Shown here piece by piece: positions 1 through 22,500 of a stretch of 46,274 bases of DNA (positions are counted from its first letter, which is position 1; each line of letters starts with the position of its first letter). The DNA comes from Spongospora subterranea. Its lineage: Eukaryota > Endomyxa > Phytomyxea > Plasmodiophorida > Plasmodiophoridae. The stretch covers positions 2,447-48,720 of the forward strand of contig OUQQ01000091.1 in the NCBI GenBank assembly GCA_900404475.1, given 5' to 3'. A program made the position numbers and the translations under genes. Under the pieces are notes generated by a model. The model saw only the letters and a list, made by a program, of their open reading frames with translations. It was not told where the DNA came from and searched no databases.

Positions 1-530
1 AGGTAGCCCTTCAACACTCAAATGCCGACGAACGGCGGTCGATCCTTCGAAGCATTCACCAACAGTGTAAGATTGGTCTTTGTTCAATAATGTTCATCTG
101 TTTCAAAGGTGTTTTAGTAGGGCTACAAAGGCAAAACGATTCGATCGAATATTTGATCTTTATCGGGAACTGATAATTCCACGACCTTCAAATTCATGGA
201 TGTTTCCAGAACCGGTGGGTATGAATCTCACGCATTCACGACAAATAGGCCCGAGTTTCTATGTTGTGAACTTTGTCAATATTTTTACAAAGAATCGACA
301 ACAACGATACTGACCATTGGCAACAGAAATTTCGAATTATGAAGCTTCAGACATTCCCGAAAACCACATCAAGTAGGTTTTGTTGCCTGTGCGAATCTGC
401 TGCATGTTATGAACCAAGTTTAGTTTAGAAAACACGGACGAAGAACGGAAACTAGGGGCGAGGGACGGTGACTTTGTCTGTGATGTGATTAAAGAGTGTC
501 AACACGAAGACGGTATTCTATTTCAACAGA
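1..530. other. Left edge, no supported gene
   Basis: Only short open frames occur here, the longest 77 codons at 80-313 on the plus strand. None resembles a family I know and none has convincing exon boundaries. It may be decayed repeat DNA continuous with the retroelement fragments that follow. Confidence 0.4.
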
Positions 531-1060
531 TCAGCAACAATGGTTACATGGGGACTTTGTCAAGTTGGAGACCCCTCTTGTGATCGAACATGTGTCCCCC
601 GAGATTCTGGGTTTGTCAATCACAAACAAATTCAAAGCCCTGTTGTGATTGGCCCTGCTTTCTTTTTGTGTGGTCCTTTCCTCATCGAATCTCCCTTCAA
701 AGCCGGAGACGCAGGATTTCCATGGTGAAACAGGGTTTATGACCTTCGTGACTTCGAACGGCCCCAATAACTTGTGCTCTAATTTACTGCAAGGTCGCAG
801 GGTGTTGCGATATCACCTCGTCGCAACCATACATTATCGCCAACTACAAATCCGGGAATGTCCTTTCTGGGTCTTGACACGCTGGTTGCTAGATTCGCGG
901 GTACAATCTGATTTACTTGTTCGCTGTGCTGTAAGCGCTGCAACAATTCTTGCAGTAAGACTTGAATCTGCTGCTCTTGTTGATGGTACGATGCCTATAA
1001 TCGTTCGACGTTGTCCATTTCAGGATTTTGTAGTAGAGTAAATTTCCGATTACACTGTTA
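531..1060 (-). mobile_element. Truncated Ty3/gypsy-like retrotransposon fragment
   Basis: Read on the minus strand from about 1024, the sequence begins with a gag-like start (MDNVERL, interrupted by a stop) and a Gln-rich stretch ending EQVNQIVPA. Near 860 it switches to a segment resembling the C-terminal part of a gypsy integrase: GDNVWLRRGDIAT, then GPFEVTKVINPVS in another frame. The middle of a normal element (protease, reverse transcriptase, RNase H, integrase core) is absent, and stops and frame changes are frequent, so this is a dead, internally deleted copy. Assignment rests on motif resemblance to the usual GDxVWL...GPFxV integrase tail. No intact LTR or target-site duplication could be delimited. 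Confidence 0.55.
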
Positions 1061-1400
1061 TAATACACCTGATGTCTCCGTCTTTCCTGTTTTCGTCTGT
1101 TCGTCCCCGGTCGTTATCCTATCCCGTCAGTTACCACCCTATCCTGTTCCAGTTTAGTTCCTAAAACAGTGTAATCGGAGATTTACTCTACTCAAGATCC
1201 TTACCCTAATTCACTATCACTTCCATAATTCACTATGGACAACGTCGAACGATTATAGGCGTCGTACCATCAACAACAACAGCAGATTTAAGTGTTCCTG
1301 CAGCAACAGCAAGAATTCTTGCAACGCGCACAGCAGAGCGAACAAGTAAATCAGATTGTACCCGCGATTCAGACAACTAACATGTCAAGACCCCGACTGG
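880..1400. repeat. Large imperfect inverted repeat (two elements head to head)
   Basis: The reverse complement of about 885-1059 matches about 1165-1400. The tightest part is 28 bp, 1032-1059 against 1165-1192, with a single mismatch (core AACAGTGTAATCGGA). A second long match pairs the Gln-rich gag-like stretch at 890-1024 with 1232-1375. The right arm carries about 35 extra bases just before its ATG. The arms flank about 105 bp of unrelated spacer. This looks like two copies of one retroelement inserted in opposite orientation, or a fold-back rearrangement. Confidence 0.8.
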
Positions 1401-1760
1401 CTACGTTAGAGAAGATGGAGATCGGAGGGTTTCCGGGCCTTCATGAACCAGATTAATTTGATTGTAAAACCTTCCGACAAATGGGTCATGGTCTGATGCG
1501 GATCGAGTGGGATATCTAATTCAGTCTAATGAAACGACCTGCGCTTCATTGGGCATCACCGTTGGTGGATTTCTAGAACCAATCAGTTCTGGACTGGGGA
1601 CTGTTCAAGGAGAAATTTCACTTGGCACAACGACATTGATACGCCTACGTAATATGCTTCCGATTGGGAGTGTTCAGGATACGTCAACATTCACTTCGGC
1701 GATCAGTCACGATTGAGTTGTAATACGGGATTCATGGACTGATAACCCCACACGTTTGAT
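1165..1760 (+). mobile_element. Decayed gag region of a Ty3/gypsy-like element
   Basis: This is the partner of the minus-strand fragment. From an ATG near 1232 it reads MDNVERL, a stop, a Gln-rich coiled stretch (QQQQEFLQRAQQSEQV), then METHIONINE-rich gag-like text in shifting frames: a segment like KMEIGGFPGLHE, PALHWA, and RLRNMLPIGSVQD followed by FTSAISHD near 1640-1710. The last resembles the LRxLxQxGSVxDYxxEF motif of gypsy gag proteins. Several stops and frameshifts make it non-functional. The downstream limit is uncertain. Confidence 0.5.
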
Positions 1761-2915
1761 AATAATTAAAACTGACTCCTAAAGTACCAACGCAAGTGCG
1801 ACGAGGGTCTGCTCCATTATAGATAGACAAACGAATTCAGCACAACTAAACCTGGGCGACGCCACAACTAGAACTGATGTTCGCGAGCCCGATTTTTCTG
1901 AACTCTGTGTACAGCATTTGGCCATGACTTATACTTCGGACATTGAGTTTTTCAGTTTGCGCTCCAATATCGTATTCCTTCAACCATTGCACTTTACAAT
2001 CGCACAGCCATTACCGAAATGGCCACGGTGACCCAAAGCCCAAGCTAGCTGAATCTATGTCTCTCGTTGCGAGAAATTAACATTTTTGCGAGTTTTCATG
2101 CATTTGGCGATGGATTTGTCGGTAAATTCGCCGATTGCTCAACAGACTGCGGTTGCGAGTCGGTCGCAACAGTTCGGCTGAATACGGGATCATCTGTACA
2201 AAGTTACGGCATGCTGTTTGAAATTGATACAGCTGAACACGATTTCGTGAACAATGAAAGCAAACCTTTGCTGCGCCACTCTTTCTTCTTGCATAAATTC
2301 ATCAGTTTTGAGACGGTAGAAGTTGCACTGTGTCGATATGCTTAGGGAACCTTGGGCGATTCATTAAACACGGTGGTCACTGATCATGGACTACTGGACA
2401 ATGTCTCTGCTGAACTGTGTCCGGCACCAATTCTGAACTGCAGTGTTTAGGTACGTGCATATGAACTCCTGTCCCTGTTGACGGAAATAAACTAAAGAGC
2501 GTCGCGCCCATTGCTCGACAATGATCGACTCCTTGGACCGTACAGGCAGGAAATTGTATATCAGCTCGTAAGAGAATTGTTGCGCTGAACTGAATGTATT
2601 AGAGACGAACAGCGAAAACAGGTTTGAATATTTCCGATTTAGATAACATCTCCATTAACGTTGAACAGATTCTGAAAGAAATGTGAACCTGGGAAGTAGA
2701 GGTCATTTTGAGTGGAAACGGCCTCAGACCTGACTATGTTGTGAGCCATCTCGGACCGGTCTATAATGGCAATGTGTATCAATCAACAACACTGTGATGT
2801 AATCTGGCAGACCTGGGTCCTCCGGAACCCGTCGCAAATGTTTTTGCGGTCGAGACCGAGTTGATGTCGAGTTTCCATCGAATTCCTTCGATTTTAAACT
2901 AAACGGTTTGCAACA
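1761..2915. other. Probable decayed repeat DNA, no supported gene
   Basis: No open frame longer than 92 codons (2067-2345, plus) and no recognisable domain. It follows the gag-like segment directly and may be the eroded remainder of that element, but no protease, reverse transcriptase or integrase core motif could be read. Confidence 0.35.
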
Positions 2916-3335
2916 ATGGATTTGCCATCTGGATTATTTGAAGGTGACCGAACTGAATCCGAGGATTTCCTCGACTGTGTTTTGTTTCAGATCGATTATC
3001 CGCAGGAGTCCGTGATTCCGTGGCGTCCTGTGGGTGACACCACCACTATACTTCCATCAGACAGGGACGAGTTGGTTCGGCGAACACCGCCGCTTCTCTA
3101 CTTAGGGCGGCCTGCATTAGGTCCATTTAAACGAATTCACATTCGTTTAGAAAACGAAATTGTGTCAACAATTGTGTTGGCCGATCTCTACGATAGCCCA
3201 AAACCAAATGCGGAGCGCCGATTACGACATGTGGCCCAAACAAACACAGGGACATGCAATACGATATTGGAGGCACTGCGAAATATGGTTCCTGTTCCAA
3301 GTTCACCTGTACCTCAAGAGGTGGTAAAAAACTGA
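2916..3335 (+). CDS. Hypothetical protein, 139 aa, unidentified
   Basis: An ATG-initiated open frame whose start reads MDLPSGLFEGDRTESEDFLD. It is polar and moderately acidic, with no membrane segment, signal peptide or cysteine pattern. A central stretch LGRPALGPFKRIHIRLENEI looks like ordinary coding sequence and not low-complexity DNA. I do not recognise the family. It could be a single-exon gene, the first exon of a gene continuing into the acidic ORF at 3520, or the surviving ORF of a repeat element. Stops lie in the same frame at both ends. Confidence 0.35.
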   Translation: MDLPSGLFEGDRTESEDFLDCVLFQIDYPQESVIPWRPVGDTTTILPSDRDELVRRTPPLLYLGRPALGPFKRIHIRLENEIVSTIVLADLYDSPKPNAERRLRHVAQTNTGTCNTILEALRNMVPVPSSPVPQEVVKN

Positions 3336-3519
3336 TTGTTCTATTGCAATCTCGATATGCAATGTTCGCACGAATCGAGGGAGACTTGTTACGGCAAACC
3401 TATTTGTAGAAGTTTTCCTTTTTCAGAACGCAATGAATACTCTGGGATTGTCTCTGATATGGTCTGTAGGGTGAAGTGTTTTATCCAGGTGAATGGTGTA
3501 GATCGATATTTGAATTAGG

Positions 3520-4011
3520 GTGAGGCAGTTGGCCACACGTAAACCAGGAAAGCCTGCTGTATTGAGTCTTGATTGGATAAATAGGCAGCAGTTAGGGACA
3601 CCAGATTGGTTTCCATTGAGCGAGAAGGCAGAAGAGAGCGATTTGACTCATGTTGAATCCACGGCAACTACACAAGATTGTGATCGAGACCTTGTCCAAG
3701 ACGATCAGGAACAAGAACAGAGCGATCAGGAAGAGGAGCAGGGCTTCATAACCCCTGAATGGGGCAAATGGAGCCCTCTGAACGTAGAGCATCTGTTCGA
3801 CGAACCTCCAAGTCCTCGTTGGTGTTGCAACGGTCCACCAAGAGAAGAGGACCGAGGCATTTTTATTCCATACGGGGTCAGGGACCCCGAAGAACGCAGC
3901 GATTGGAGCCCTCGTTGTTTCTTGTGGAGCCCGCTCGACAACGATACAGATGGCCTCGACGACGATAAAGATGGCAACGGAGACAATCAAGACGAACAAC
4001 CGAAAACATAA
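3520..4011 (+). CDS. Hypothetical acidic protein or exon, 163 aa
   Basis: An open frame with strongly acidic patches: DDQEQEQSDQEEEQ in the middle and DNDTDGLDDDKDGNGDN at the C-terminus, separated by a Trp/Pro-rich region with repeated WSP motifs (KWSPL, DWSPR, LWSPL). The three WSP units suggest a short degenerate internal repeat. I cannot assign a family. The frame may begin upstream by splicing from the 2916 ORF; 3336-3518 between them shows no clear coding. A long minus-strand open frame overlaps it (3592-4272) and looks like a shadow. Confidence 0.35.
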   Translation: MRQLATRKPGKPAVLSLDWINRQQLGTPDWFPLSEKAEESDLTHVESTATTQDCDRDLVQDDQEQEQSDQEEEQGFITPEWGKWSPLNVEHLFDEPPSPRWCCNGPPREEDRGIFIPYGVRDPEERSDWSPRCFLWSPLDNDTDGLDDDKDGNGDNQDEQPKT

Positions 4012-4305
4012 AAAACTCAACGAGTTCATGAAATTGAGGGTTAACAGTTTTGAATTGAACCTGCTATTTGTACATATCAAACTTCTACATCGTCTGGTTT
4101 GTTCGTCCAAAGAATTTGAACAGCGCCGAGACAGAAATGAACAAGATGCTAGATTCGCGAAAATGTCGTTGGATTGTGAAAAGCCATGCGGCCTGCCCTT
4201 TCTACGTATAACAAGTCTTATTTTTTTTTCAATGTAGCAGCAAAAAGAACCCTCTGAAAACTCTTCGACCATAAGGTTTCAAAGCAACTGAGCGATCGAT
4301 TCACG

Positions 4306-4425
4306 ATGTCAGAACAGTCCGAGGTTAGCGCAACGCGTAATTTAACCAAGGTAGAGCGTGATGCAGTTCTATTAGAAGGAGATTGTGGAAACTATTTGAT
4401 AAAGGAAAACCTGGCAATGGCGTAA
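4306..4425 (+). CDS. Small hypothetical ORF, 39 aa
   Basis: A short ATG-started frame beginning MSEQSEVSATRNLTKVERD and ending ENLAMA, with amphipathic, charged composition. It may be the first exon of a small gene or a remnant. It lies in the convergent gap before the 3' end of the NCLX gene and nothing downstream in this orientation extends it. Confidence 0.2.
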   Translation: MSEQSEVSATRNLTKVERDAVLLEGDCGNYLIKENLAMA

Positions 4426-4670
4426 AACCCACAAATTGCTAGAAAATTTGCTGTTTTTCCCACGTAAACGGAGTCTGTAGCTAAACGAAATTTCAACCAA
4501 GGAAAGGTAGCTGCTGATGTGAGCCCAGAAAAAAAAATGGAGTTCCTGCACTGTGTTTTCGCCAAAATCAAAACCAATTTCACGAAAGCCGCTTGGATTT
4601 GAGGGAGTATAATTTATTGATGATACAGTTTGAGAAAAAGCCTTTGGCTGGCACAGTACCTGGACCTGCA

Positions 4671-7600
4671 TTAGATGAAAGCAATCGAAACAGCAACGAA
4701 GACGACGTAGAATAGAATAAGAATGATCCCGAATGCTGACGGCGGACGGAAACGATAAGCGATAAACCCAAACGCGTTGGTAAACAGGCTTAAAATGAGG
4801 AATGACCAACCCAGAGCTATATGCGGTGTAGTCGAGAATGTCACTGGCGACGGGTACGTCGATGAACACGCAACAGCAAAGGATAATCCTAGGCCCAATA
4901 ATCCCTATATAGAAACTAAGAGACAATAGACAAACAATTATCAATTTCAGAGAAAGAATTCAAATAGCAAATGTTGGAAGTCATGGAAAAATGGTAAGAG
5001 CACGATTACCCTCTAATAGTTGCGAAACGAAAACAAATTAATGTTATGGAACTTGGAAACTATATTTAAAAAAAACGGACATTCATGATGGGTGCACCGA
5101 AACATGCAGCGATCGCCAAAGCTGATCCAGACGGTGACCGGGCGACAGACGAATTTGTAACCAAATCGGAGACAGAATTTGCAAAGGCAAAAGCCGTAAC
5201 GCCCAAAGCAGAAACCGATACGTTGACGATTGCGCCCAATGCCTGAATAGCCGACACCAACTCGGATGCAAGTAACGATATCCATGCCATGGACGTGACA
5301 AAACCGATCAGCGACAAAGACCACAATGGGAGCGGCCTGGATTGCAAAGGAAATATACGCCATGCCAAAACCGCCAAAGTCGCACCAATAGGAATCGTGA
5401 ACAGAGCAGCACTCAGAGTGCTCGTGAAAGCGAGAACAATGAGGGGTAATGCAAAGAAAGGCATCACGCAAAGCCGACTGCGTTCCGATTGTGTAAACTC
5501 CCCGGTCGCCACAGGTATCGTAATGCGCCTAACAATCAAAATCGGGGCACGTTAATGACCAAAACCGTTTGAACGCCAATTACTCGTCAAAGTTATATAC
5601 AATGTGCACAATCTGGAAAAACCGAACACAAGTTTGACGTGATCCAAAGTGGTGGCAAGATAACGAACTAAACTTAGTGGTGGCAAAACGACGAACTAAA
5701 CGTAAACCAGAGTGGATGATTGCGAAGAATGAGCAGAAAAACGACCACCGACTGACCGAAGCCAAGTGTAGGGTGTTACGGCCAAGTTCCAACCCTCCTG
5801 TGCAGAGCGGAAGAAACAGGCGAAAATCTGGCCAGACTCATACAGCGAATCTTCGCGAGAGGAACTTTCGCTGTCATCGAAAACAGAATCTCCAAAATCA
5901 TTACGATGGTCGGGACCGAAATCATACAGCGGCAGCGGCTGTGCTCCACCTGGGATCGGGGCGAACAGCTCTATACGAACTTGCTTAGGGCACCCAAATT
6001 CCTACAAATTAGTCTATGATTATATATTTGTTAGGATCGTAATTTCGCGAAACAAGGATGCACTATGCCATTCGCATGCAGCGTTAGACATTTGCTACAA
6101 AATTATAGGAGTATTCCGGATTCTGATACACAAAATGCGGAACGTTTGATCATTAAAAAAAATGAAGGTAAAGTAAACCATTAAGTTGACGTCAAACAAA
6201 ACAAAGAAACGACTGTACCGTAATACTTAATTGGCAATTGAACAGTAATGAGATACAGGGAGGCGCTAATGAGCTGTGAAAGACAAACTATATTGCGAGC
6301 AAAAGCCTTACCGATGACTGAACGAGCCGCTGAGGTTGTTCATCAGTCAAGAGAGAATAAGTAAGACCATCATCGAGCCCAGAGAGCGAAAGGACCTGAA
6401 GCATAATCGGTGCATTATCGAGAAAACACCAACCACATTTAATCAAGAGGCACCAAGAAACCAGAACAAATGACCAATTTGAGACGGCAATATCGATATC
6501 CGGGAGGTCAATCCAAACTTTTTTTACGAAAAGTGATTTTTTCTAAAAAAATAACTTTGTAGTGGAGAGGCATTTTGTGTGAAGCCTAACCCGAACCGGA
6601 ATCGATCTGGGCGTTAAAAAGTATGTGGAAACGATAGCAGCGGCGTACAGGAAATAGAGAAGAAGGAAAGCACTCGCCTGCCACATGTACACCTTGCCTG
6701 ATTGGCAAATCATCACTATCAATGCCTACGAAGCCAAACATGTTAAACAATGCAAGATACACACTCAAGGACAAATCACAAAAAAATGCATAACGAATCA
6801 ACCAACAACATACTACTCATTTGCTTCAAAAATAAATAAATGCAGAGTGCTAATTGTGGGAAACAACGAGTGTTGACCATATGCATAAATGGTGTATGGA
6901 TTATTTGACGTCATACCGTTGCGATTAAGTAGACGGCGATGTCACGGATGAGCCAGACGCCGTGTTCGACCTTTGCTGGAGACGCGCAAATTACGAATCC
7001 TATTATATGTATAAACATTCGCGCGTTGCTACGTAATTCAAAATTCTAAGTCGAAACACCGTGTTTCAATCTCGAAATTCGGTATTCAACAAAGCCGGAA
7101 GAATCACGTTGCTGAAAATTAAGACTAACGTCAATCCACTAACGTAATTTCTCGACGTCAAACATATTTGGAATATGAGTTATTTGCTGGGTTACCGAGA
7201 CACAGGGTAGTTACACAGACACCGCCACCGATAATTGCCGATAGCACGAATGGGATATCCGAGGTGCGAACACCAGCCACCGCCGTAAATACCTAATGGA
7301 AAGACAGATACGATATGACCCCCAGCTCCATCACAGTGGGTTAATCAATATCTCTCACTCACATCGGTGGCGCTATTACCGAACGCTAAGAGAGTAACAC
7401 CGGCAACGCTGGGAGGCAATTTTAAGAAGCCCGACAGGCTCTTCAAGATTGGTACCTGAACGTTCACCATACCCCATTACCATGATGAATGGCACTGATA
7501 TGCTCCTGATTACTCACAAAATAATGCTGGACGGTATCCGACAGCAGGATGAGCAGGACGATGGTAACGAACAACACCAAAGGTAACGTGACCATGTGAC

Positions 7601-7823
7601 CAAACCATCCTGGTGTACAGTAACGCAATGCGTAGTAATTAATACCATAGATTTGGTCGACACAGAAACGTTGACTATATTGACATTGGGTAAGTCCCAA
7701 ATCCGCCGCATTGCGATCGATAAATTCACAGCGATACTGATCCATGTTACTGTCGTCGGCAAATGTCAAACTAAACAATATACATGCAATGATGTTGGCT
7801 ACGTGGCGCCATTTTGATGTCAT
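4671..7823 (-). CDS. NCLX: Mitochondrial-type Na+/Ca2+ exchanger (NCLX family), 9 exons
   Basis: A CaCA-superfamily antiporter that in characterised members exchanges calcium for sodium or lithium across the mitochondrial inner membrane. Exons, transcript order: 7823-7518, 7455-7363, 7292-7196, 6999-6917, 6725-6591, 6395-6312, 6001-5757, 5528-5081, 4904-4671. All junctions keep frame and give 574 aa, close to human NCLX (584). The N-terminus has a hydrophobic signal (NIIACILFSLTFA) and a Cys-containing lumenal segment. Alpha-1 repeat: GVTLLAFGNSATDVFTAVAG. Alpha-2: ALGVTAFAFANSVSDLVTN, then GSALAIAACFGAPIMN. The acidic loop in exons 6-7 is the regulatory cytosolic loop. The alpha-2 motif has Ala where Gly is usual (GNS to ANS). 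The last intron has an unusual GTCCGT donor. Introns of 62-310 nt. Confidence 0.88.
5648..5703. repeat. Two-copy direct repeat in an NCLX intron
   Basis: Two adjacent, slightly diverged copies of a roughly 27-bp unit (core AACGAACTAAAC following GTGGTGGCAA) lie inside the intron between the seventh and eighth NCLX exons. Probably a simple local duplication. Confidence 0.5.
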
Positions 7824-9273
7824 GAGCTAAGCCGTAATGGCGAGGAATTCCTAAGCAATCATACCAGTATCAGTGTCAAAATGCCAACTCCGCAGTGCAT
7901 TTGAATTATATCGGGTACGGTTCACTGAACTATGAGACATTGCACTCATTACCGCAGGCAATTGAAACATTTTTCAAACTGCTGATTCGATGGCCGATCG
8001 TGACCATTGCTTTAAATTGTTGATTTCACGTTTCGAATAAACTGGGTACTGTACTCATTCAAGTTCAAGAAACACCGCCTGTGAGCGTCTCCAATGATGC
8101 CTGATCATCAAAGTTCAAGAAATTGGCGTGTTCTAGTCCATTAATCAGGTGATTTATTAGATTGAAACACCATTTATCAAAGGCTTCCGCGGCGCTAGTG
8201 AGTGGACAAAGTATTGTAAGCGGCAGCGGCATGGCAGGGCGGCATATTGCCTCGTCAACGAAACGGAATGAGGAAATAAAAAGAGTTGCTTGAAAATCGT
8301 CACGAACGGTGACAAATGAAAGGTACTGCTTGAAGGATCGGCACGAAGGCTTGTCCATGACATTAAGGGTGTTGTTTGCAAGATCGGCATGAAAGGCTTG
8401 TCATGACATCAAGGGTGTTGTTTGCAAGATCGGCATGAAAGGCTTGTCATGACATCAAGGGTGTTGTTTGCAAGATCGGCATGAAAGGCTTGTCATGACA
8501 TCAAGGGTGTTGTTTGCAAGATCGGCATGAAAGGCTTGCACATGACATTAAGGGTGTTGCTCGCAAGATCGGCACGAAAGGCTTGCCCATGAATGAAGGG
8601 TGTTGTTTGAAGGATCGGCACGAAAGGCTTGTCCATGAAGTGAGCGATGTGGCTTGAGGATCGGCACAAGAGGCTCGTCTTACTGGCGAGGCTTGGGGTA
8701 CAGCAGGTTTAACGTCGAGGAAAAACTTTCACCAGTCGGACCACCAATTTGCCTAAGGCTTCCTCCATGAAAACTTTTTTCTTCCCAGTTCCATTTGTTC
8801 AGTGCCGCTATCTTTCTGAGAGCAACGTCAATCGAGTCATTGCTGACAGCAGCAGCAAATGGGAATTCAACAGCCTTGGAAGCACCATTGTGTCACGGTG
8901 TTTGGCATAGACTTTTGGTGGCAAACGTTGGATATAGGGCTTTCGTCTCTGTCAACTAAAAACTACTGTGCAATCAAGAAACCTTTGTTAAGTAAATAAT
9001 AATATGCCTACCTACGAAATGAACTATCTTCCCTGTAGTTCAATCATAATTATATTAAGAGTTTTGAATGAGAACTTCATCATTATCTTTGAGCCTGGGC
9101 AAGCAATTCGTAAGAACTACGTCGATATGTTCAAGTGAGCTTTCGCAAACGGACAGATGTGCTACTCACGAACGATATGCGTTTGATATATCGGTTTAAT
9201 TTCCATTTAGTGACAATCCAGGGTCAACCCAATGTTCGCTCAACTATCCGAGTCCAATTACCAGTTTTGAAAC
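7824..9273. other. Divergent intergenic region between NCLX and UFD2
   Basis: About 1.45 kb between the starts of two divergently transcribed genes, so it should hold both promoters. The middle carries the minisatellite described separately. Minus-strand open frames at 8065-8390 run into the repeats and show no domain. No TATA-like or other site could be assigned with confidence. Confidence 0.5.
8318..8665. repeat. 46/47-bp minisatellite, about seven copies
   Basis: Tandem units containing GCAAGATCGGCATGAAAGGC followed by TTGTCATGACATCAAGGGTG and TTGTTT. The central copies (about 8375-8535) are near identical with a 46-bp period; outer copies are more diverged, with a 47-bp variant (GTCCATGACATTAAGG) and shortened units near 8590 and 8640. 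Each inner unit includes the palindrome GTCATGAC. Homogeneous centre with eroded edges is typical of recent unequal crossing-over. There are no spacers, so it is not a CRISPR array. Confidence 0.9.
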
Positions 9274-12200
9274 GTGAGGCTCATGGATTGTCACCGACGA
9301 CTTACACGATCGTTGGACGACTGCGGAGAGCGGCCGCGCAATCTTCAATTGTATTTGCTGAATGGATCTATGAATCACGGAGACGCCAACGACGATATCG
9401 ACCAATTTCTGTGCAATATATTGCAGATTAGACACGATCCCTGCGCCGACGATGCTGTTGACGAGTTGGGCGAATACGATGAGGCGTTCTGGCGAAGCTG
9501 GGACAATGCCGTAGGCTCAGGTCAAAGGCAGTTATCGATCCGCAATGTCGAATTAGTCATCGCCGATCGTGTATCAGCTGCTTCTCCAGTTGAGTTTCTA
9601 GCGCATTCCTTTTTTGCTATTAGCTCCTATCAAAAATATGGGTCTGTTTCGTTATTGCTGCTCAGATATGCAACCCTAATGCTAACGCGCCCCGGCTCAA
9701 TACCAGTCAAAGACGCGAAAGAGCCGTGTTTAACCGTATTTACCGATTGGTTATGCCGGGAGCTGCCCGCTGAGCAGGCGACAGCCCAGTCTATATTGGC
9801 ACGTGATGTCTCCTCAGCAACGCTTGACGATACTGGGTTTGTGGACAACACAAATACCCGTGAATTTCTTAGCGCCATCGTCACCGCCGTTTCGGAGAAA
9901 AACGTCGCCACTATTGTCTGGAATCTGGTCGCCAGTCTGATTCGAATTGTAAAAGGCAGTACTGTTTTGACTTCCGATTTTTTGCGTCCCCTTCGTGGGC
10001 TTCATCGTCTATTGTTATGTGATCGCAAATGCATGGTGAAATTCGTGTACCTCCCAACCTTCATGAATGCATGGCTAAGTGGGCCCAACCTCGAAGTGGA
10101 TAGCCTAATGGGAATTTTCATGCGGTTGTCAACTATTATGGACTCGGACCCCTCCGTCAGCGAAGCCATATTTTCCCGTGTTGATATGATGTCAGAACAA
10201 CTTGTTTTGATTACAACCACGAACGTACGTCACAAACTATATAGGTTAGTACAGTCAAAAAATTCATTATTTTGAGCGATGTGGGCTTTTCTTTTCATAT
10301 ACAAGTCATCAAATGAAGGCTTCACGTAATAGGCTCGCAACTTTGACGTCAATTATCTGTCCAGCAAATCCTTTTTTTTGCGGGTTTCACGTCAGCCTAG
10401 CGATTGCATTTTTATTTTGTTTCAGCCGACTCTGTCTCGTTTTGTACAATTGTATTGTCTAGTTTGTTTACTGACTTCGATTAAAATCGTCTAGAGTTCA
10501 CAATGTTTTACTAGAAATCTGGACAGAAATGATCTCTAGAGACGACATTTGCAGAGCTGCTCTTTTAGCGTGGATTGGCTCAGTTTTGCTCGGTAACTGG
10601 TCTCGCACGAGGATGCACTCTCGTGTCAAGTCCACATCTTCGGGTTTGTATTTCGTTTGTGTATCTCTTCAAGTTCTTACTGTAGTACAGATGATTTTCT
10701 ATTAAGTCTATGCTCTTTGATGTTGAGCGTTGCTCAGGATAAGTTGCGCATCTCTCTAGATAGTTTATCAACAACTTTCTTCACGCGACGGTCACGTCTT
10801 GACCTGGGTGAACAGGAGACCAGAATTCATATGCCCACTACAGAGGTTCGCATGCTGGCACTCCCAGATTTTTTTTCAACGTTTCCAATGATTTACTCCC
10901 AATATATGTCTTCTTTTGATGATGTAATTGGTTTCGGCGTTGGCATTTTGCCTTGTGTATGAGCTGTGGCGGTTTTAAATTGTACTGACCCATGCTGTTT
11001 TGTGCTGTGGCAAATATGCAGATTACAGAGATACTGTCCCGTCAACCCGACGTTCCGCAAAATCGAGCCGATGAAGAGTTCATGCGTGTTTCTTTAACAG
11101 ATTCTCACTATGGGATTATATGTTAGTACGACGCCTTATATAGATTTGCCCGAATAATTATAGCCAGGTGATCGCTGCCGCTCCCGATCTGTCCATGGAG
11201 TCAGATTCAAGTGCGTCCACTGTCTTGACTTTGACCTTTGTGAACCGGTAAGTGGGAGTTTTCCCGTTCTTCTATTGTAAATTTATTTCCGGGTATTTGC
11301 AGTGTGAGCGTGAATTTTACCGTCTCACTCTTGGTCAAGCCATCGATTCTGGAACGGCGTTTATCTGCCCATTTCGAGGTTGCAGTGAACTCTCGCAAAT
11401 GACCGAGCTAGAGCTTCGTCTTCATATTTGTCAGACGCACAGTTCGAATCGAGAAACAACTCGTTGCCCAATATGCTATGGTATTGAAAAAAATTCTCTT
11501 TTTTTGTTGTCAATATCTGCTTCTTTCTCCACCATTCATATTTGCACGATTACTTATTTTGTGGGTTATCTCCCGTCGCTTGTCACTTATTTTGTTTAGC
11601 TAATGGTTCCGATGCTTCCTTTCCGTTATTAGCCGATCATGTTCAGCGGGACCATTGCGATGTTCATGATCATACTCGGCACTTGATGCTCAAGATCAGG
11701 AAAATGATTCCCTGTAGCCCTTGGAAACGATCATTATCGTTACCTATACCAGATATTGCTGACCTATCAAACGAACAGATTCAAATTGATGCTGATACTT
11801 ACCAGGTTAATTACTTTCAACAGGGTTTTTACTAACTTTTGTGTCAAACCACATTGTCTTTTTTTGCCTGTTGTCACCGGTTTGTGTACATAATTTTTTG
11901 TTGCATTGTCGTTTTAAAATGTCTTTGACATTGTTGGTTATGGTTGTGTCATTCTTCTAACGGGTCGTTGCAAAGGGGCAGGTGGTTCATCCCGGAACTC
12001 AGTGCTGCAACTGCTGTGTTTCACCAATCATTGGGTACCCACTGTTTCTTGTCATCCTGATCGTCCTGACTGCTCATTCAGGATCCGATATGTTTGCATT
12101 AATTGTCCTCCGACACTTAGCGTCTGCTCCCAATGCGAGAATGGCTCCCGTTTTTATGATTCTCATTCGCCCTCGCACCTGTTACTGCAATTACGACGTC

Positions 12201-15200
12201 CGTTAAAGGAAGATATTTTTCAGTCGTTTCCGTCACCTAGTATTTATCCCAGTCCGATCGTGGGAAGTTTTGGATTCGCTCTTCCCTCTGAATGGTTTTA
12301 TTTGACTATGCATGGAGTCCATCTTGGCATCATTCAGTCTTGCATTCGGTTCAATGCCATCTCTCAGACCATCCATAATTCACGTAATCCTTATTTTACA
12401 AAAGTCTGAATCCATTTAGTTAAAGAATTTTCAACTTTTATTTATTCAGATGCTTCAACTCACCTAATCTTTTTTTAGCTGCTCCTCGCCCCAATCAACA
12501 GACGATGAATCAAGTAAAATTTGGAATGGCGGTTCAGCTGCTTGACCCATTGCTGCTGCGTGCGGTTCTCTCACTTTTCGGTCTAGCAGCAAGATTGATG
12601 CTGACTCTGATCAATCCCTCATCGTTGAGACCTGAATTGCCGCTTACTGCAACATGCTCTCCGACTTTCGCTGCGTTACCCGAATATTACGTTGATGATA
12701 TGGCCGCATTTTTGATTTTCCTTGCGGAACATGGAATATCGTCTTTCAACGCAACCATTCCGACTCGGGTGGATCAACTCGATGAGACACACGACTCAGT
12801 GTGGATTCTGCGCCTGTTCGTCTGCTTGATCGCCAGGTTGGAGTTGTTTATATTGAGTGATCCATGGCCATTCTTTTTCATATTTGCTCCGTCAGTGGCT
12901 ATATCTGTGGCATATTAGGGATTTCTATATTTTTTCCATGGGTACCCATATTCGAGCTATTGTAAATTGACGGCTATCCAAGTAGCCACCAGCCATTGTT
13001 AGATTTCCTTCACAAATCTTTTTAATGGCCTTTTGTTGATGTTATATAACTTTCGCTTGATTTGCTAACATGCTACTTCTCGGTTTCTTTTTAGTCCTGG
13101 GTTTGTCACCAACCCGTATCTTCGAGGANNNNNNNNNNGGCATTCTGTGCGCTAGCGCCTTTTCATACATCTCATGGATACGGCACTCAACGACTTGGGG
13201 CATTAGTTGAACAAGACGAGTTAAGTTTTACCCTTGTTTTCGAATGCTTTTTATTGATGATTTGCAGGTTTCTCTGTCAAAACTTTCTTCCCTCTATCCT
13301 CCTTCTCTACATTCATATCGAACATACTGGTTCTACTGCCCAATTTTACGAAAAATTTAATGTAGCGTCTGACTACACTGAATGAGAGCTTTCAACCGAC
13401 CTTGTTGCTTAGGTCCGGAACGTAATTGAGCTCCTGTTGAACTGGCTGTTGACAATTCCTGCTCATCAAAATGTTTTATCAAGTTTCAGGTATTGGGACA
13501 TTTGATTAGGTTAAAAACTATTTTCAGGTATTTAGCGTTGCAATAGCTCAGCAGATCCAGACACAAGCTTGCAGTTTTTACACTGTCTCATTACCGATAT
13601 GGTGTTTGTTCTGGACGAAGTAATCGTCAAGGTGAATTACGTTGTTCTCATGTTTCTGATGTATTTTGTTTATTTCTTTGTTCATGATTATTGTACTGTC
13701 AGATTCTCCTAATGTGCGTTAACAAGCATTTTGTGAAATCTACTTCATCATTTATGGTTCTAATCTGGCTTTTAGGCTGAGGCGTTTAGTCATGAGGATT
13801 CTAACCTCCTCCAAAGTGTTTGTTTTCGCATCGTTCCTTTTTTCAGTGTTAATCTTCGTTGCCAGGCTCGATCAGCTGCGGCCTCTACCCGACATTTGCG
13901 GATCGTGTCGTCATTGGCTAACGAGTCCTTGCGAACACTGCTTAATTTGGCTGCTCAACCCAGTATGAGTTTTCAATGACTTTCTTATGGTTTACTTCAC
14001 AAAAATTTGCTGTATCATTCAGTTTACGGTGTCGCCAGGTTCTTAAACATTTTTTTGTAATCGTTTCAACTGTTGATTTCTTACTGTATATTTTTTGTTA
14101 ACGAAACGTTTTTTGGTAGTATGCTGACAATCATGAGCTTCAGCCCGAACATTATTTCGATTTTGTATCTTAAAACTTTCCATTTTAAGCATGATCTCAA
14201 GTTAATTTGTCTCAACCGCACTTCTGTAGGTGTGAATGTGATTTTGAGGCGTCCTGAATTGGTGGATCGGCTTGCTTACTGCATCTCGTACTATGTGGTT
14301 CGCTTGCTGAGCGTTATCGATATCGCCCAGCGCAGTTCATTTGCTGCCTCCGGGTTTTCACCAAGCGATTGGCTTCGAAAATTCTGTCAATTGTATATTT
14401 TTATGTCACCATCCCCAGAATTCACTCATGTAAGTTTCAGTTTGTCAGCATGCGTTTGTTCTTTTCGCAAACCATAATCGCTATGGGGTCTTGGCTTGGG
14501 CATTCAATATGTTTTTGATTTGTTAACATAAATTGTTTTGTTTGTTCGTAGGCTGTCGTAACGGACGGTCGTTCCTTTCGACCTGACTTGTTTGACTCTT
14601 GTTTAAGAGTTGTTCGGGATACACTTCCCTCGGAACACTCCGATTACTTCGATCCTGATCTTATTATCAAGTTGGCCAAATTCTTCGATGATATGATAAC
14701 CCTAGCCGAAGTAGTCAAACAACGTGAAGAAGGTACACCTTTTTCCATAGATCCATTTTTCTCAAGTTTTTCAGTTAATTTCTAACTTTGTATTTAACGA
14801 TCACTCTCATTTTCCTTATCAATTGTGTTCAAACGATTACACTTTTACCTACTGTGATTGCTGGTTTTGCACGTCCATTGAAACAATCATTCAGGATTTA
14901 TGTCTACAGTTTTTTATTTTGCAAGAGCCTCGAAGGGTCGGTCTTTTGTGCACTCACATCTGTCTATGCAGTTTTAGGTGACATTCCCGAGGACTTCTTA
15001 GACCCTATTTTAAACACACTCATGGTTGACCCTGTAATTCTCCCTGCGTCTGGTATAACCATGGACCGTGCTGTGATATGCCGTCATTTGCTGTCTGCCC
15101 AAAGCGACCCGTTCTGTAGAGAACGGTTAACTCCGGAAATGTTAAAACCAGGTGCTCACATGTTTCTTTGCTGCGTACAATTGATGTTGAATTTGCAATT

Positions 15201-15277
15201 CAGACGTTGAACTCAAAAGAAGAATCGAAGAGTGGCAAAGTCGGCAAAGAAACAACGAATTGAATACACATACCTAA
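9274..15277 (+). CDS. UFD2: Ubiquitin conjugation factor E4 (UFD2/UBE4) with internal zinc-finger module
   Basis: An E4/U-box E3 ligase that extends ubiquitin chains. Exons: 9274-10244, 10495-10643, 10691-10923, 11022-11121, 11168-11247, 11303-11480, 11600-11805, 11982-12034, 12082-12383, 12479-12890, 13095-13219 (with N gap), 13268-13361, 13413-13489, 13547-13631, 13776-13962, 14230-14429, 14552-14732, 14978-15151, 15204-15277; about 1,290 aa. Core landmarks: [88 protein letters not shown], then a C-terminal U-box with [15 protein letters not shown] and [12 protein letters not shown] and the tail [10 protein letters not shown]. Phases agree at every junction except across the gap, whose length is not real. 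The N-terminal start is the least certain part. The zinc-finger insertion after exon 3 is not in the yeast or human proteins I know. Confidence 0.88.
11022..12200 (+). other. KCMF1-like ZZ - C2H2/Di19 - ZZ module inside UFD2
   Basis: This part of the E4 gene encodes zinc-binding domains in order. First a ZZ-type finger, HYGIICDRC, then FKCVHC, then LCEPCE; its usual trailing His pair is missing. Next two C2H2 fingers of the Di19 type: FICPFRGC...LHICQTH and RCPICY...HVQRDH. Then a second ZZ finger: [28 protein letters not shown] and [14 protein letters not shown], complete with its His pair. The order ZZ then paired C2H2 and the linking text resemble KCMF1, an E3 partner of UBR4. ZZ domains often bind N-degrons or histone tails, so a substrate-reader role is an inference. 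Exon 12082-12383 runs without a stop from the second ZZ into UFD2 core sequence. Confidence 0.8.
13129..13138. other. Assembly gap (10 N)
   Basis: Ten ambiguous bases inside a UFD2 exon, between NPYLRG and AFCALAPF in translation. The reading frame is not conserved across ten bases, so the number is a placeholder. Both sides match neighbouring parts of the UFD2 core. Confidence 0.95.
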
Positions 15278-15784
15278 TTTATTTTCTGTCGTTCACTGTT
15301 ATCCGTAGTTTTTTTTTCCTGTTTGCCCCATTGCGAAGTAAATTTCCCAGAACATGAGGGAAGCACTTATCTGTAGGTTGAGAGAATCGGAAAATGCTAT
15401 GCGCCAGGTGTCAGAAAAACCCAGCGAATGTTTGAGTTCAATTCTCGACTATTGAAGAACTGAAGCAGAGGGTCTTTTTGGGGAAAAATACACTAGAGGG
15501 CAGATGAAATATACATATTCATATTCTGGCAGCCGTCGAATATCGTATTAATATCGCATTTTCACTGATGTATTTTTTGTGTCAGATAATCAACACAAGA
15601 CGTTTTTTTATCAGAACCATACCGGCAATAAGGGACATCCGGTTTGAAAAAAGTCACAGATGCAACGCGTTGGTTTCAGCACTTGCATGGTCCTAACCTG
15701 ACAGCTACATGTCTTTTGTCTATAGTTATTTCAGGTTTTGCGATTTTCTCCAATTCAATACTTGTAATTTGGTTTATTTAGACT
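15278..15784. other. Convergent intergenic region
   Basis: Lies between the stop codon of UFD2 and the presumed 3' end of the next minus-strand gene. AT-rich with several T tracts; no gene, repeat or RNA recognised. Poly(A) signals for both genes are expected here, but no clear AATAAA was picked out. Confidence 0.4.
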
Positions 15785-16631: not shown

Positions 16632-17507
16632 TCACATCACCCATCCCCGAGTGACGTCCGTTGCACATGGAATATTAACGAGCGGGATCTGTCCAACACT
16701 TCTTGGTACAACCATATCACGCCAAGAGTCTTGCCGCTCGTCCAGGGCCTTGAACTTGGTCTGCGGTGGTGCCAACCTTCCTTGTTGCTTCTCCACAATC
16801 TGCCGCAACATCCGCAGCTCCTCCGCCGACGTCTCCCGATTCTCGATCGTATTGCAAACAGCTCGGCATAACAGCATTACACCACGAGTGCAGTCATTGA
16901 GGGTTGAAGCGGATTCACCGACCTTAAACTCAACACTATCTATTTTGTTTGCGACGAGATCAACAACACCTTTGATGCAATTCACGTTCTGCCCAAGTCC
17001 ATCAACTTTGCCGTCAAGTTGACCCAGATCGCTGCGGATTTCCGACTGGGCTGAGGCCAGTTTGTCTTGCTTGCCTGAAACTTGTTCAATCTTGGCCATA
17101 AGACCCACACGAACTTCGGTGATGCGTTTGGAGAGTCCATCGAGGCCTTTCTCCAAGGTGGCAATGCCTTTACGGAAATGACGACGTGTGACCCAGGCGA
17201 GGGATGTGAGGGAAATGCCCGCCCAACGCAGCCCAATATACCCGGCTCCACATACACAGACACAAGCGACTCCAGCTGACAAGGCCTTGCTTCCGGTGGC
17301 GCCAGAACCGGTCACGACCGTTACGCCCGAGTTCGACCCGCGAAGATTTGCCAGGGCAGTGGCCAACTGCGACATTTCGGATGGCTCTTTGCCACCCATA
17401 AATTTCGGTACGAATGTTGCACCGGCACCTCCCATCAGTCCGGCCATGACGCCAGGGAATAGGCCCCGGCCAGCCGTTTGGACGAGAATTGGTGCCGCCA
17501 TCCTCAA
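16632..17507 (-). CDS. DUF1664 family protein, 291 aa
   Basis: Single open frame on the minus strand. The N-terminus is short, basic and Gly/Ala-rich and could be a mitochondrial or organellar targeting segment. A hydrophobic region (ALSAGVACVCVCGAGYIGLR) is followed by GISLTSLAWVTRRHFRKGI and then a long coiled coil with heptad-like KGLDGLSKRI, KIEQVSGKQDKL, QLDGKVDGLGQN and SVEFKVGESASTL, ending near GVMLLCRAVCN. This matches the DUF1664 layout known from plants, where a short membrane part precedes VTKRN and a coiled coil ending in a hydrophobic MYLC-like motif. Function of the family is unknown. The last 60 residues (EKQQGRLAPPQTK onward) are less conserved. No intron needed. Confidence 0.75.
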   Translation of the reverse strand: MRMAAPILVQTAGRGLFPGVMAGLMGGAGATFVPKFMGGKEPSEMSQLATALANLRGSNSGVTVVTGSGATGSKALSAGVACVCVCGAGYIGLRWAGISLTSLAWVTRRHFRKGIATLEKGLDGLSKRITEVRVGLMAKIEQVSGKQDKLASAQSEIRSDLGQLDGKVDGLGQNVNCIKGVVDLVANKIDSVEFKVGESASTLNDCTRGVMLLCRAVCNTIENRETSAEELRMLRQIVEKQQGRLAPPQTKFKALDERQDSWRDMVVPRSVGQIPLVNIPCATDVTRGWVM

Positions 17508-19595
17508 AACACGACAAGCGAAACTGACGCCACAAAACTCCGTACCAGAACGACCTCACAAAGCCCTTTCCAAGTCGCAGCTGACGTGACGCGACCTTCT
17601 AACGGGTCCCCGTTCCCACTTGGGGGCAGTTGTGCCCACTTTATCTGACGCGCTGGGAGAACTACACTAATGGGATTGAGGCTGTGACTGCTGCGACCTT
17701 TGTCACGGTGGGATAAGATCAGATCTACTTGAGTCAGTTATCTATGACGGGATTGCTGCTTGAGATCGTTTGAGACACTATTGAGACTCGACAGTACTTC
17801 GCCGATTAAAACATCACAGCTCAATTGAATCGCCAAAAGAAATCATTGTTTCATGTTGAGTTGATTGTAGTTTTCGCTATGTCTCACGGTCTTCAAATCA
17901 CTCATGTTTCTGGTTCTGTCAGTGAACCAGATAGACTTTGAACCGTTCTTTGATTCGGACTGTGTTGCAAATGCATTAAGAAGCCTGGACCTTCAGAGAT
18001 TGAAGGTCAAGCCATATTTCAGTTAACAGAGGAAGACGTTTGATGAAGCAATCAACCAAGGCTCACGATGGAAGAATCTAATCAAACTAAAAATGTGCAA
18101 AATGTGACCTGAGTCGTTCTCGTCAAGGCCACTATCAATGGTCTTGGGGGGTCTCCGTTCGTATTTAAGTTACGGTGAACTTGACAGAGATTCTGTCCAC
18201 ATTTTATTTTGTTTGTTTGATTTGATCATGGCGTGGTCTTCGATTTTTCAAGGCCTGCCTTCATTGAACGCATCGCACATCACCAAACCGGCTCAAACAT
18301 CGAATCAAAGCCTGACACGGTCCGAAAACTAAAGCCTTCGTTTTTCCTACTTCCAACCCGCTCATAATCTCGACTCAAGAAGATCATTTTTTAATGAATA
18401 TTAACTAAATCATTAAAAATCTACTATAGTTTGAGGCAGGCGTGCAAGTAGCGGATCTGAACCCGGTTCATGCATGTGACAACATATCATCCGAAGTTGG
18501 AACGGAATGATCGCTATATTTGGGTAGCAGGGAGCTCTTCCTGAAATCCTTCGAAATCATCTGGTTGAGCAGGTTCTGATCATGCAACCAAGCACGACTG
18601 TTTATGTCACTTTTTCTGGATCCAGGTTTAACGGCAAAAAATCTTTTTGGAATATATGCCATCAAAATGTGTATATGTTTCAAAGGCGAAATTGAGCAAT
18701 TGATTATGCAGTGAAACAGCAATGATTAGGCAAAACCAGACTTTGTTATCACCAACAGCATACCGATGGTTGTATGGCAAAAGACTATTTAATCGAATTA
18801 TGTTAGAAGTGGTTGTCTGCTGTATCTGACCGCGATTCTTGGTCGATTACGTCAGCAACAAGGGTTCAAAGAACGACGAATCCGAAACCCTCAAGTTGAA
18901 GGTCAATGAAAGCCAGCATTACGTATGATTGGATTATTGACCACATCAATCGCCTTTAAAATGTATAGTGGACGAATATTGAGGTGATAAAACTTGGCAA
19001 CGACAGCAACTGATTCGTCGCTCTTCAGTTCGCCGTTCCCCATGCTTCAATGCTAATTTGCAGGCATGTTTTCAGTTCCAGATTAACAAACCGCCGTTAT
19101 GCAACTGCAGAATACTTCTGTCCTCTGACTGCAGTTCATCTCGAAATCAACTTCAAACGAGCGGACTCAAATCATTTTTGGAACGAAGCACAGTGTTAGC
19201 AATCATCAGTTCCTGATCGTCTGTCTTTGACAAACACCCTTCCCTTGCTGTGATATATCAACTGAGTACCGCACCGTAATCAGGTACCACTTACCAGACC
19301 AGATATGACCCATTGTTAGACGGTGGTTCACGTGGGACCGACCCCGTTCCGTGTCGCCTGTCAGAAAACATTGGTAACGTGACACGATTAACAACGTAGG
19401 TGCAGTCCGGCTTGACACGATACCGTTTCGAGGAGTGGCCCTGTTACGTTCTAGAGTGAACTTGTCGACCAGAGGTAACGTTGCGCGTGGATAAAAAAAA
19501 GTACAGTACAGCGCGGAAAATACTCTGGGATTAAAGTTAGGGGACTAGGGGTAACCCCGTAGAGCTGGTCAATCAAAGTCAAAACCAAAGTGGCA
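17508..19595. other. Intergenic region of about 2.1 kb, no supported gene
   Basis: Only short frames occur, including 84 codons at 18468-18722 (minus) and 64 codons at 18138-18332 (plus), with no recognisable domain or splice-consistent extension. Parts could be eroded repeat DNA. The region lies between divergently transcribed DUF1664 and ABC transporter genes, so promoters for both are expected. No tRNA or repeat array was identified. Confidence 0.4.
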
Positions 19596-22500
19596 ATGAG
19601 ACGTGTGAAATCGGTTCCGGCGTTGTCCGAGGACGGCGGAGACTTGGACGGAACGTTGACTAGGGCAAATAGTAACCATTCATTACAAGGGGTCCGCCAT
19701 GAGGAGAACTCGAATGCGGCTGGCACTGTCATGGAGAGGCTTGAAGGAATTCTAGGGACGAGTGATTTAGAAGGCTGCGACCTGAACACCATCACCAAAA
19801 TGCAATTCGCCAAAATTATCAGTATCATGCAAGAGTTCAATCTCATAGAACAGCCTGCAACCTTGGTGTGGAAAGATCTATCCTTCATTCGGGACGATCG
19901 CCGCGTTTTTCAAGGTATATCGGGGTTCATCAAACCGGGCTCTATGGTGTGCTGCATTGGCCCGTCTGCCTCTGGAGTATCTTCGTTTCTTCGCGTGTTG
20001 GCTGGACGTCAACAGGCGGGAACTGTACACGGCTCAATTTTTCTCAATGGTAAATGAACTTCATATTGCAATAACTTGTACTACATGTTCTCAAACGATT
20101 AAACAGGTCTTCCGCCTGCGGAAAATTTCCGAAAGGTCGTTTCATATGTCCCATTTGAGGATTTGCACATTGAGTAATTTTCTAATTTTGTTTTATCGGC
20201 GCCCCAAATAATATTTTTCAGTCATATGAAAGTCAAAGAGGCGATTCGGTTCTCAATCGCATTACGCGCATCGCCACTCATACCGCAGCGCTTACTCGAT
20301 CTTCAGGCTCGAATTATACTTCACCTTCTCAAGGTACTTTAGTCAAACAACATCCGTTCTGTATTCTTACGATTGCCAGCTCACGCACCGGGCGCGATCC
20401 AAAATTGGAGGCGCCAACGTCCGAGGCATCAGTGGAGGTGAACGTCGCCGTCTAACAATTGGGTTAGAGTTTGCTGCCGGCAACTCCAGTAGGCGTCTTT
20501 GTTATATCGTCTTTTTTGTTATTGATACGGGCCATGAAGTCATGGTTATGGACAGTCCCACTAATGGGCTTGATTCTGTATCAGCTGGAGAGTTAGTCGA
20601 TATTACCCAGGCGTTAACCAAAAGCGGTCGCTCTGTAATCATGTCATTGGTTCAAGTTAGTCACATGGGTTCTCTTGATTTTTAAGTGACTTACTTGGAA
20701 CACAATCAGGTCTCGATGGAAATACTGTCCAAATTCGATTATGTGATTTGCTTATCGCGATCTGTGCTGATATACTTTGGGCCAGTCAGCCAAGTTCTGC
20801 AATACTTCCAATGCATTGGGTAAGGACATGAGAATCATGCTCACGTTTAGTGGGTTGAATCTTGCAATGTTCATCAGATATCGGAAGCCATCGTCCCGAA
20901 GCCTGCCCGATTTCCTGGCTGACGTTTGCGCTGATCCCGGGGAGCACTACGTTGGCGGATCTCCCTTATCTGAACTCCAAATTAATCCAAACTCATCATC
21001 ATTCTGGTCAAAAAGCGAAACTCAGTATTTTTCGTTGAGCCCCTCCAGTTGCGATCGTGTTAAGGGTCACGATCGATGATATTATTGTCAACTGGTATTT
21101 TTTCCAACTGGATTTTTGTTTACAGGTGGGTCTGCCCGCGCGTTGGCCCATGCGTATAGAGAGTCTGTGTTGTTTGAAGAAGTTGGTCGAGTTATATGGA
21201 AAGAACAGAATCAATCAGAGAATATCGCGGTATGAACCTTTGTTGCATTGTTGACATTTCCTCACATGCTCTATCGACAGGTCTTGTCATCCCCTTCCCA
21301 TGAAAAGTCATTAGCCGGTGCTGTACGCGAAGTGCTCAGCCAAGTGGCCAAAACCATTCCTAAACACAAAGCCGGAGCAATAGCTTCCGGATTCAACTCA
21401 ACTGTCATGGCTCAATTTACCGCCTGTTTGATGAGGTAACTGGGTTTTTTCTCTTCATGCCTCTATTTCAATATTTACACTCTGCATAATACTTGTCTGT
21501 CAGAACTTGCTTCTTCAAGTTTGCATTGATATTGCGTTTTTGTACAGGGCGGTTATACTGAACTTTCGAGAAAAATCTAAATCGATTGGTCGCCTAGCGC
21601 GGGCTATTCTGGTAGCCATCGTGACTGGAACAGTATTCTGGCAATTGGAAAACTCACAGGTATCTTAGCGTATATGAAATTTCAACAAGAGGCATAATTG
21701 TTTTTAGGCCGGTGCTTTATCTCGAATTGGAGCCAGTATGCTCATCGTTCTTGTTCGTCGCTCCTATCGTTTTTCGTCTAACTTTTTACCTAGTTGCGGT
21801 CGTTGCTGGGTTTATTGGTTATGACGCTGCCGATGAAATTCCACAAATTTTCCAATCTCGGTACAAGTTTCGCTTTCATGTAAATTTTTTAACGTTTGTT
21901 TGGTATCAGATCGATGTTCTATGCTCAGAGAAATGCAGGATATTTTTCTGCCTTTTCATATTTTCTTGCAAGCTTGATTGCTGATTTCCCGATTATACTG
22001 ACGCAGACGACAATATTTTCGGTTATTGTGTATTCAATGATAGGTATTGCCGCTATGTCTATTGTCGTTCGAGGTACAGTCAACCGGTGTTCATTTTTTT
22101 TGCAGGCATGAGGGATGGCGTGTTTAGCATTCGCTTTTTCATTTTCGCCCTTCTAGTTTTGCAAATTGGGATAACAGGTCAGTCTTTTTGCTGGTAACAA
22201 CTTGTCTCTGACGTTATCTTAGGGAGGGCATGGACTACATTTGTCGCAAATATGATCACCAACGAGGTTTGTGATTCTTGTGCATTATGAAACCTGTTTG
22301 ACTTACTTTACCACAGTCTGTTGCTATCACGCTAGCCCTTGTGACAAATGATCTCTTTTGGTATTTTCAAGGATATTTTCGGCCCGTCCAAGCAATTCCT
22401 TCATTCCTGCGCTGGTTAAACTATATAAGCTACTTCACTCGCCTGTTTCAGGTAGACAGACGTTGCTGTCGAAATACAGGACATGTTAAATTTTGTCAGG

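What the first reader, a model, noticed from the sequence alone, without database searches (positions are those of the whole stretch)
11022..12383. E4 ubiquitin ligase with an embedded KCMF1-like ZZ/Di19/ZZ zinc-finger module
Yeast UFD2 and human UBE4A/B, as I remember them, have only about 20 residues between the ETRxxxTxE block and the next core helix (here WFYLTMHGVHLGII). In this gene about 270 residues of zinc fingers sit there: ZZ, two C2H2 fingers with KCMF1/Di19 spacing, and a second ZZ. Exon 12082-12383 is one open frame running from ZZ2 into the UFD2 core, and every intron phase on both sides agrees, so this is one protein and not two neighbouring genes. A built-in reader for N-degrons or histone tails in a chain-elongating ligase would join functions that KCMF1-UBR4 and UFD2 supply separately. 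I know of no described E4 like this.
Basis: partly seen in the sequence, partly recalled or inferred. Interest (0 to 1): 0.88.

Follow-up and report, generated by a model that had tools for sequence, protein, structure and literature searches.

The report
Ubiquitin chain-extender with built-in zinc fingers
A gene for a protein that lengthens ubiquitin tags appears to carry, inside its core, a zinc-finger module like the one another tag-lengthening machine uses to recognise its targets, which would put target reading and tag extension in one protein.

Summary
Window 9370-15278 (+) is one UFD2-type E4 gene of about 20 exons (Ufd2P_core 1.1e-83, C-terminal U-box 5.5e-25). Its core profile stops at position 148 and resumes at 162. 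Between lie about 270 residues holding a ZZ, a Di19/KCMF1 double C2H2, and a second ZZ. The front part best matches KCMF1 (1e-10); ZZ2 best matches ZZZ3 (3.5e-8).

ZZ2 resembles ZZZ3/PRT1, not KCMF1, and has no acidic pocket. The organism is probably not a fungus (recalled EF-1A form). The assembly holds a second E4 gene whose core has no insert at that point. It also holds UBR4 and ATE1, but no detected stand-alone KCMF1.

New: a strong, in-phase acceptor-like site at 12224 would remove the module as exactly 253 codons and leave an ordinary UFD2, so the module may be switchable.

Best reading: an E4 that reads substrate N-termini or degrons through the KCMF1-like module and extends chains through its U-box. 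Function is inferred. Eukaryote-wide novelty could not be tested because the protein database was off.

The parts
9370..15278 (+). UFD2-type E4 gene, about 20 exons, protein about 1199 aa (frame across a 10-N gap at 13129-13138 unknown)
9370..10244 (+). exon 1, N-terminal part and start of Ufd2 core
10495..10845 (+). exons 2 and 3 (10495-10643, 10691-10845): Ufd2 core up to ETRIHMPTTE, ends in phase 0
11022..11121 (+). exon 4: linker with an internal ATG at 11082, start of ZZ1
11168..11247 (+). exon 5: ZZ1 (CDRC...CVHCLDFDLCEP)
11303..11480 (+). exon 6: end of ZZ1, first C2H2 finger (CPFRGC...HICQTH), CPIC of the second
11600..11805 (+). exon 7: second C2H2 finger end (HVQRDH), HDHTRH stretch, linker
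11982..12034 (+). exon 8: start of ZZ2
12082..12383 (+). exon 9: rest of ZZ2, linker and resumption of the Ufd2 core in one open frame
12204..12224 (+). possible alternative 3' splice site (ATATTTTTCAG|TCG, first exon base 12224), phase 0; joined to exon 3 it removes 253 codons and gives a continuous Ufd2 core
12479..14732 (+). exons 10-18: rest of Ufd2 core
14978..15278 (+). exons 19 and 20 (14978-15151, 15204-15278): U-box and C-terminus

Best explanation
The gene encodes a substrate-reading E4. A KCMF1-like ZZ plus double C2H2 (DZB) module and a ZZZ3/PRT1-like ZZ replace a short loop inside the UFD2 core, while both halves of the core and the U-box remain. The module most likely loops out and binds features of already ubiquitinated substrates, above all free N-termini through ZZ1, so that the U-box and its E2 extend chains on chosen clients. 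Shown: the architecture, the intact frame, kept zinc ligands in the double C2H2 and ZZ2, and kept pocket aspartates in ZZ1. Inferred: N-terminus binding, chain extension, and that the module leaves the core fold intact.
For: Ufd2P_core and U-box scores; position of the insert between profile 148 and 162; best solved-structure match to KCMF1 ZZ-DZB, 1e-10. The alignment places D447 and D449 at KCMF1 Asp29/Asp31 (residues checked), whose mutation abolishes binding of the ABHD10 client in an experiment done once (PMC12286842, passages). KCMF1 ZZ-DZB is a substrate receptor for an E4 and reads N-termini (PMC7618180, passages). UBE4B and UBR4-KCMF1 act on the same Ub-fusion substrate in human cells (PMC12552062, passages). 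The genome has an ATE_C match, so probably the arginyl-transfer branch. A second E4 gene, whose core exon runs through this point without an insert, could leave this one free to specialise.
Against: ZZ1 lacks the usual H...H pair. Placing the later HDHTRH stretch after ZZ1 did not raise its Pfam score (37.7 against 38.5 bits alone), while a control tail from finger 1 gave 38.9 and a third tail 38.0, so its second zinc site may be broken. ZZ2 lacks pocket acids. PMC7617804 found the KCMF1 N-terminal part dispensable for one client (passages). No RNA, no orthologue, no structure model. Codon usage was uninformative.
Confidence: 0.55

Rival explanations
1. The module is a splicing cassette: transcripts joining exon 3 to 12224 make a plain UFD2, others make the reader-E4, so the cell can switch the reader on or off (or 12224 is the fossil acceptor of the intron into which the module was shuffled). 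This is compatible with the best explanation.
For: 12224 scores second of 147 unannotated AGs inside exons with a matrix from this gene's own 19 acceptors; it is in phase 0 like the end of exon 3; the removed stretch is 759 bases, 253 codons; the joined protein gives one unbroken Ufd2P_core match of 142.8 bits against 70.2 plus 66.4 for the halves.
Against: No RNA. The first- and third-ranked unannotated AGs (11647 and 11435) lie in C2H2 coding sequence and are in phase 0 too, so score and phase alone are weak. My rough chance estimate is about 3% (six AGs in 12196-12283; 2 of 147; one in three phases).
Confidence: 0.25
2. The module is a dock: it ties this E4 to UBR4 through the contact that KCMF1 uses, joining the two chain extenders.
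For: UBR4 is present while no stand-alone KCMF1/Di19 was found; KCMF1's ZZ and two C2H2 fingers bind the DOC1 domain of UBR4 (PMC12286842, passages).
Against: Of five contact residues mutated in that paper, the two I could align differ: R20 is V438, E38 is R456 (alignment); the other three I did not align. No KCMF1 C-terminal pin helix is recognisable in the insert (by eye).
Confidence: 0.12
3. Two overlapping transcripts: an upstream truncated UFD2 and a downstream protein starting at ATG 11082, a few residues before ZZ1, as in KCMF1.
For: An in-frame ATG lies just before ZZ1; junction 3|4 is not crossed by homology; the exon 3 donor gttcgc looks weak by eye.
Against: Each product would hold only part of the Ufd2 core; phase and order agree across the junction.
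Confidence: 0.06
4. The module is a decayed relic without a binding role.
For: ZZ1 lacks two ligands and ZZ2 scores only 19.2-19.8 bits, below the 21.4 cut-off when scanned alone.
Against: Frames are intact over six exons; all eight C2H2 ligands, the ZZ2 ligands and the ZZ1 aspartates are kept.
Confidence: 0.12

Closest known systems
UFD2 / UBE4A / UBE4B E4 ligases
   Same: Ufd2P_core and C-terminal U-box in the same order; the C-half aligns with a solved UFD2 chain (yeast, as I recall) at 3.9e-42
   Different: About 262 extra residues of zinc-binding domains inside the core
KCMF1 (UBR4 cofactor, SIFI complex)
   Same: ZZ followed by a Di19-type double C2H2; pocket aspartates kept
   Different: Embedded in an E4; ZZ1 lacks H...H, finger 1 is CX4C, the two UBR4-contact residues that I could align differ, no pin helix seen by eye
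ZZZ3 and PRT1 ZZ domains
   Same: ZZ2 best matches 2fc7 (ZZZ3) and also PRT1
   Different: ZZ2 has CPPTLSVC without acids and Cys590 in place of the Asp of CDxC
Plant UBR4 (BIG) with DI19
   Same: A published case of the ZZ sitting in different partners of an E4 complex: the plant DI19 cofactor lacks the ZZ, which sits inside UBR4 (PMC7618180, passages)
   Different: Here the domains sit in the other E4 family

Membership tests
UFD2/UBE4 E4 | Ufd2P_core domain | tested here: met
   1.1e-83 in two stretches
UFD2/UBE4 E4 | C-terminal U-box | tested here: met
   5.5e-25; 4.6e-21 to the UBE4A U-box
UFD2/UBE4 E4 | chain-extending activity | not testable with these tools
   needs biochemistry
KCMF1 | ZZ plus Di19-type double C2H2 | tested here: met
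   best solved-structure match is KCMF1, 1e-10 over both parts
KCMF1 | UBR4-contact residues and C-terminal pin helix | tested here: not met
   R20 to V, E38 to R by the alignment (two of five residues aligned); no pin helix seen by eye in the insert. Not filed as a KCMF1
ZZ zinc finger (ZZ1) | six Cys and two His ligands | tested here: not met
   six Cys present; profile ends at 37 of 45, no His in the 20 residues between C454 and C475
ZZ zinc finger (ZZ2) | six Cys and two His ligands | tested here: met
   C589, C592, C604, C607, C614, C617, H627, H631; profile 7-44 of 45 but 19.2-19.8 bits, below the 21.4 cut-off
Di19 double C2H2 | two C2H2 sites | tested here: met
   C475/C480/H494/H499 and C508/C511/H526/H531; 29.0 bits over the cut-off 27.5 when scanned alone, below it in longer queries

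The most novel reading that the evidence does not exclude
Stand-alone KCMF1 has been lost in this lineage and its ZZ-DZB reader absorbed into a second UFD2 paralogue as an in-frame splicing cassette, so one gene makes either a plain E4 or an N-terminus-reading E4.
Probability: 0.15. Interest if true: 0.8.

Novelty: new variant of a known kind. Interest (0 to 1): 0.6.

Why it matters
In human cells UBR4-KCMF1 and UBE4B act on the same Ub-fusion substrate (PMC12552062, passages).

Tried and rejected
Two neighbouring genes: held unlikely, because one exon carries ZZ2 into the core and both core halves are in order and phase. Simple skipping of exons 4-8: rejected, 617 bases shifts the frame; the 12224 site keeps it. 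ZZ1 histidines supplied by the later HDHTRH stretch: not supported by the profile test, where one control tail scored higher. Codon usage as a coding test: uninformative; the training set was 7 long open frames not all checked as genes, 3586 codons. Relatives: viral contigs gave none (5 stretches matched a pattern, none confirmed); genome contigs was asked with the U-box only and gave one bacterial locus. A stand-alone Di19_C protein: no match, but the tool warned that nothing rang in any control, so absence is not shown. C447 as the middle part of UBR4: the propeller-like and sandwich-like frames had no match over a cut-off in Pfam and none in solved structures; only its ZZ resembles ADA2 and plant BIG, so it stays unproven. 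The insert-free N-half had no solved-structure match, so I could not place the loop on a solved UFD2 residue by residue. A piece of the C324 paralogue had no meaningful solved-structure match. Structure prediction was not used: the spliced protein is not given letter for letter by the window DNA, as that tool requires.
Full report
What is there. The window holds a UFD2-type E4 gene on the + strand from 9370 (ATG) to 15278 (stop). I built it by hand from GT-AG introns of 46 to 267 bases. The protein is about 1199 residues; a 10-N gap at 13129-13138 leaves a few residues and the local frame unknown. Pfam gives Ufd2P_core at 1.1e-83 in two stretches, U-box at 5.5e-25, ZZ at 4e-10 in two stretches and zf-Di19 at 4.1e-4. 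The C-terminal half aligns with a solved UFD2 chain (yeast, as I recall) at 3.9e-42.

The insert. The core profile runs from 1 to 148 up to residue 391 and resumes at 162 near residue 667, so about 262 residues are extra. They hold ZZ1 (422-457), two C2H2 fingers (475-531), a linker, ZZ2 (about 583-634) and a second linker. Residues 421-518 best match KCMF1 among the solved chains (1e-10 with the insert alone; 9.3e-10 with the whole protein). ZZ2 best matches ZZZ3 (3.5e-8) and also PRT1. The Di19 stretch passes its curated cut-off when scanned alone (29.0 against 27.5 bits) but not in the longer queries.

Is it one protein? The KCMF1 alignment crosses junctions 4|5 and 5|6 and runs a few residues past 6|7; the ZZZ3 alignment crosses 8|9 and, weakly, 7|8. 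Exon 12082-12383 runs in one frame from ZZ2 into the core. Junction 3|4 rests on splice signals and phase. An ATG at 11082 lies just before ZZ1, so a separate downstream start cannot be excluded, but each product would then carry only part of the core. Codon usage did not help.

Details that change the reading. ZZ1 has six Cys and keeps D447 and D449, which align with KCMF1 Asp29 and Asp31; in KCMF1 these are needed to bind the N-degron client ABHD10, in an experiment done once (PMC12286842, passages read). But ZZ1 has no His pair where the family has one. Adding the later HDHTRH stretch gave 37.7 bits against 38.5 for ZZ1 alone; two control tails gave 38.9 and 38.0. ZZ2 has all eight ligands but no acids in CPPTLSVC, and scores below the ZZ cut-off alone. 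Of the five KCMF1 residues mutated to break the UBR4 contact, the two that I could align, R20 and E38, are V and R here.

A possible switch. An acceptor-like site, ATATTTTTCAG|TCG with first exon base 12224, lies between ZZ2 and the resuming core. Scored with a matrix from this gene's 19 acceptors, it is second of 147 unannotated AGs inside exons. It is in phase 0, as is the end of exon 3. Joining the two removes 759 bases, 253 codons, and gives one continuous core match, 142.8 bits. This would be either an alternative splice giving a plain UFD2 or the fossil of the intron that received the module. Skipping exons 4-8 alone would shift the frame (617 bases). The matrix is small, and the first and third ranks, 11647 and 11435, lie in C2H2 coding sequence and are in phase 0 too, so this is suggestive only; six AGs lie in 12196-12283, which makes a chance hit of this rank and phase about 3% by my rough estimate.

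The genome (G000, 20.6 Mb, 679 contigs). A second E4 lies on C324. There the ETTR block and the next helix are about 25 residues apart in one exon, by eye, and the profile is continuous from 133 to 216 in a piece spliced by eye; its U-box is nearest UBE4A. UBR4 is on C112 (2.0e-40). An ATE_C match lies on C251 (9.0e-15, with three stops inside the matched stretch). ZZ matches were three: this gene, an ADA2-like ZZ with a SANT-like stretch (named by eye) and a ZZ on C447 that resembles ADA2 and plant BIG. Di19 matches were one, this gene. The insert itself found only its own locus (5 of 5 matches). These searches read exon by exon, so a stand-alone KCMF1 cut by introns could be missed. The EF-1A protein on C349 has the form I recall from stramenopiles and other non-opisthokonts, and a neighbouring gene is DUF1664; I therefore doubt the fungal label, on recall only. 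The organism is not identified.

What it most likely does. KCMF1 ZZ-DZB is a substrate receptor of the UBR4 E4 and reads N-termini (PMC7618180, passages). PMC12286842 also reports ubiquitylation supported by the KCMF1 ZZ (passages), against PMC7618180, which found no E3 activity. In human cells UBR4, KCMF1, TRIP12 and UBE4B all contribute to chains on a folded Ub-fusion substrate (PMC12552062, passages). A UFD2 with a KCMF1-like module would thus join client selection and chain extension in one chain. This is inference from anatomy.

Novelty. Six paper searches aimed at E4 proteins with ZZ or KCMF1 parts returned 1, 5, 0, 2, 7 and 164 papers (20 of the 164 listed); none of the listed titles or abstract openings describes such a protein. 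I read passages only of PMC12552062, PMC7617804, PMC7618180 and PMC12286842; the others I saw as listings. Two further searches served the KCMF1 background. The large protein database was off, so an undescribed but common clade-wide insert remains possible.

Noticed in passing
G000:C324:57300-60950 (L031): A second UFD2-type E4 gene whose core exon has no insert at this point, with many short introns; U-box nearest UBE4A.
   Followed up: partly
G000:C447:14186-14293 (L009, L018): A ZZ resembling ADA2 and plant BIG, downstream of propeller-like and sandwich-like frames; may be the middle of UBR4 with an internal ZZ as in plants, unproven.
   Followed up: partly
window 16632-17555 (-): Long frame with DUF1664 (3.9e-21) and coiled coil.
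   Followed up: no
window 8328-8679: Tandem array of a 46-base unit, about 7 copies, just upstream of the E4 gene.
   Followed up: no
window 19563-27859: Frames that look by eye like an ABC transporter of the ABCG type and a zinc alcohol dehydrogenase.
   Followed up: no
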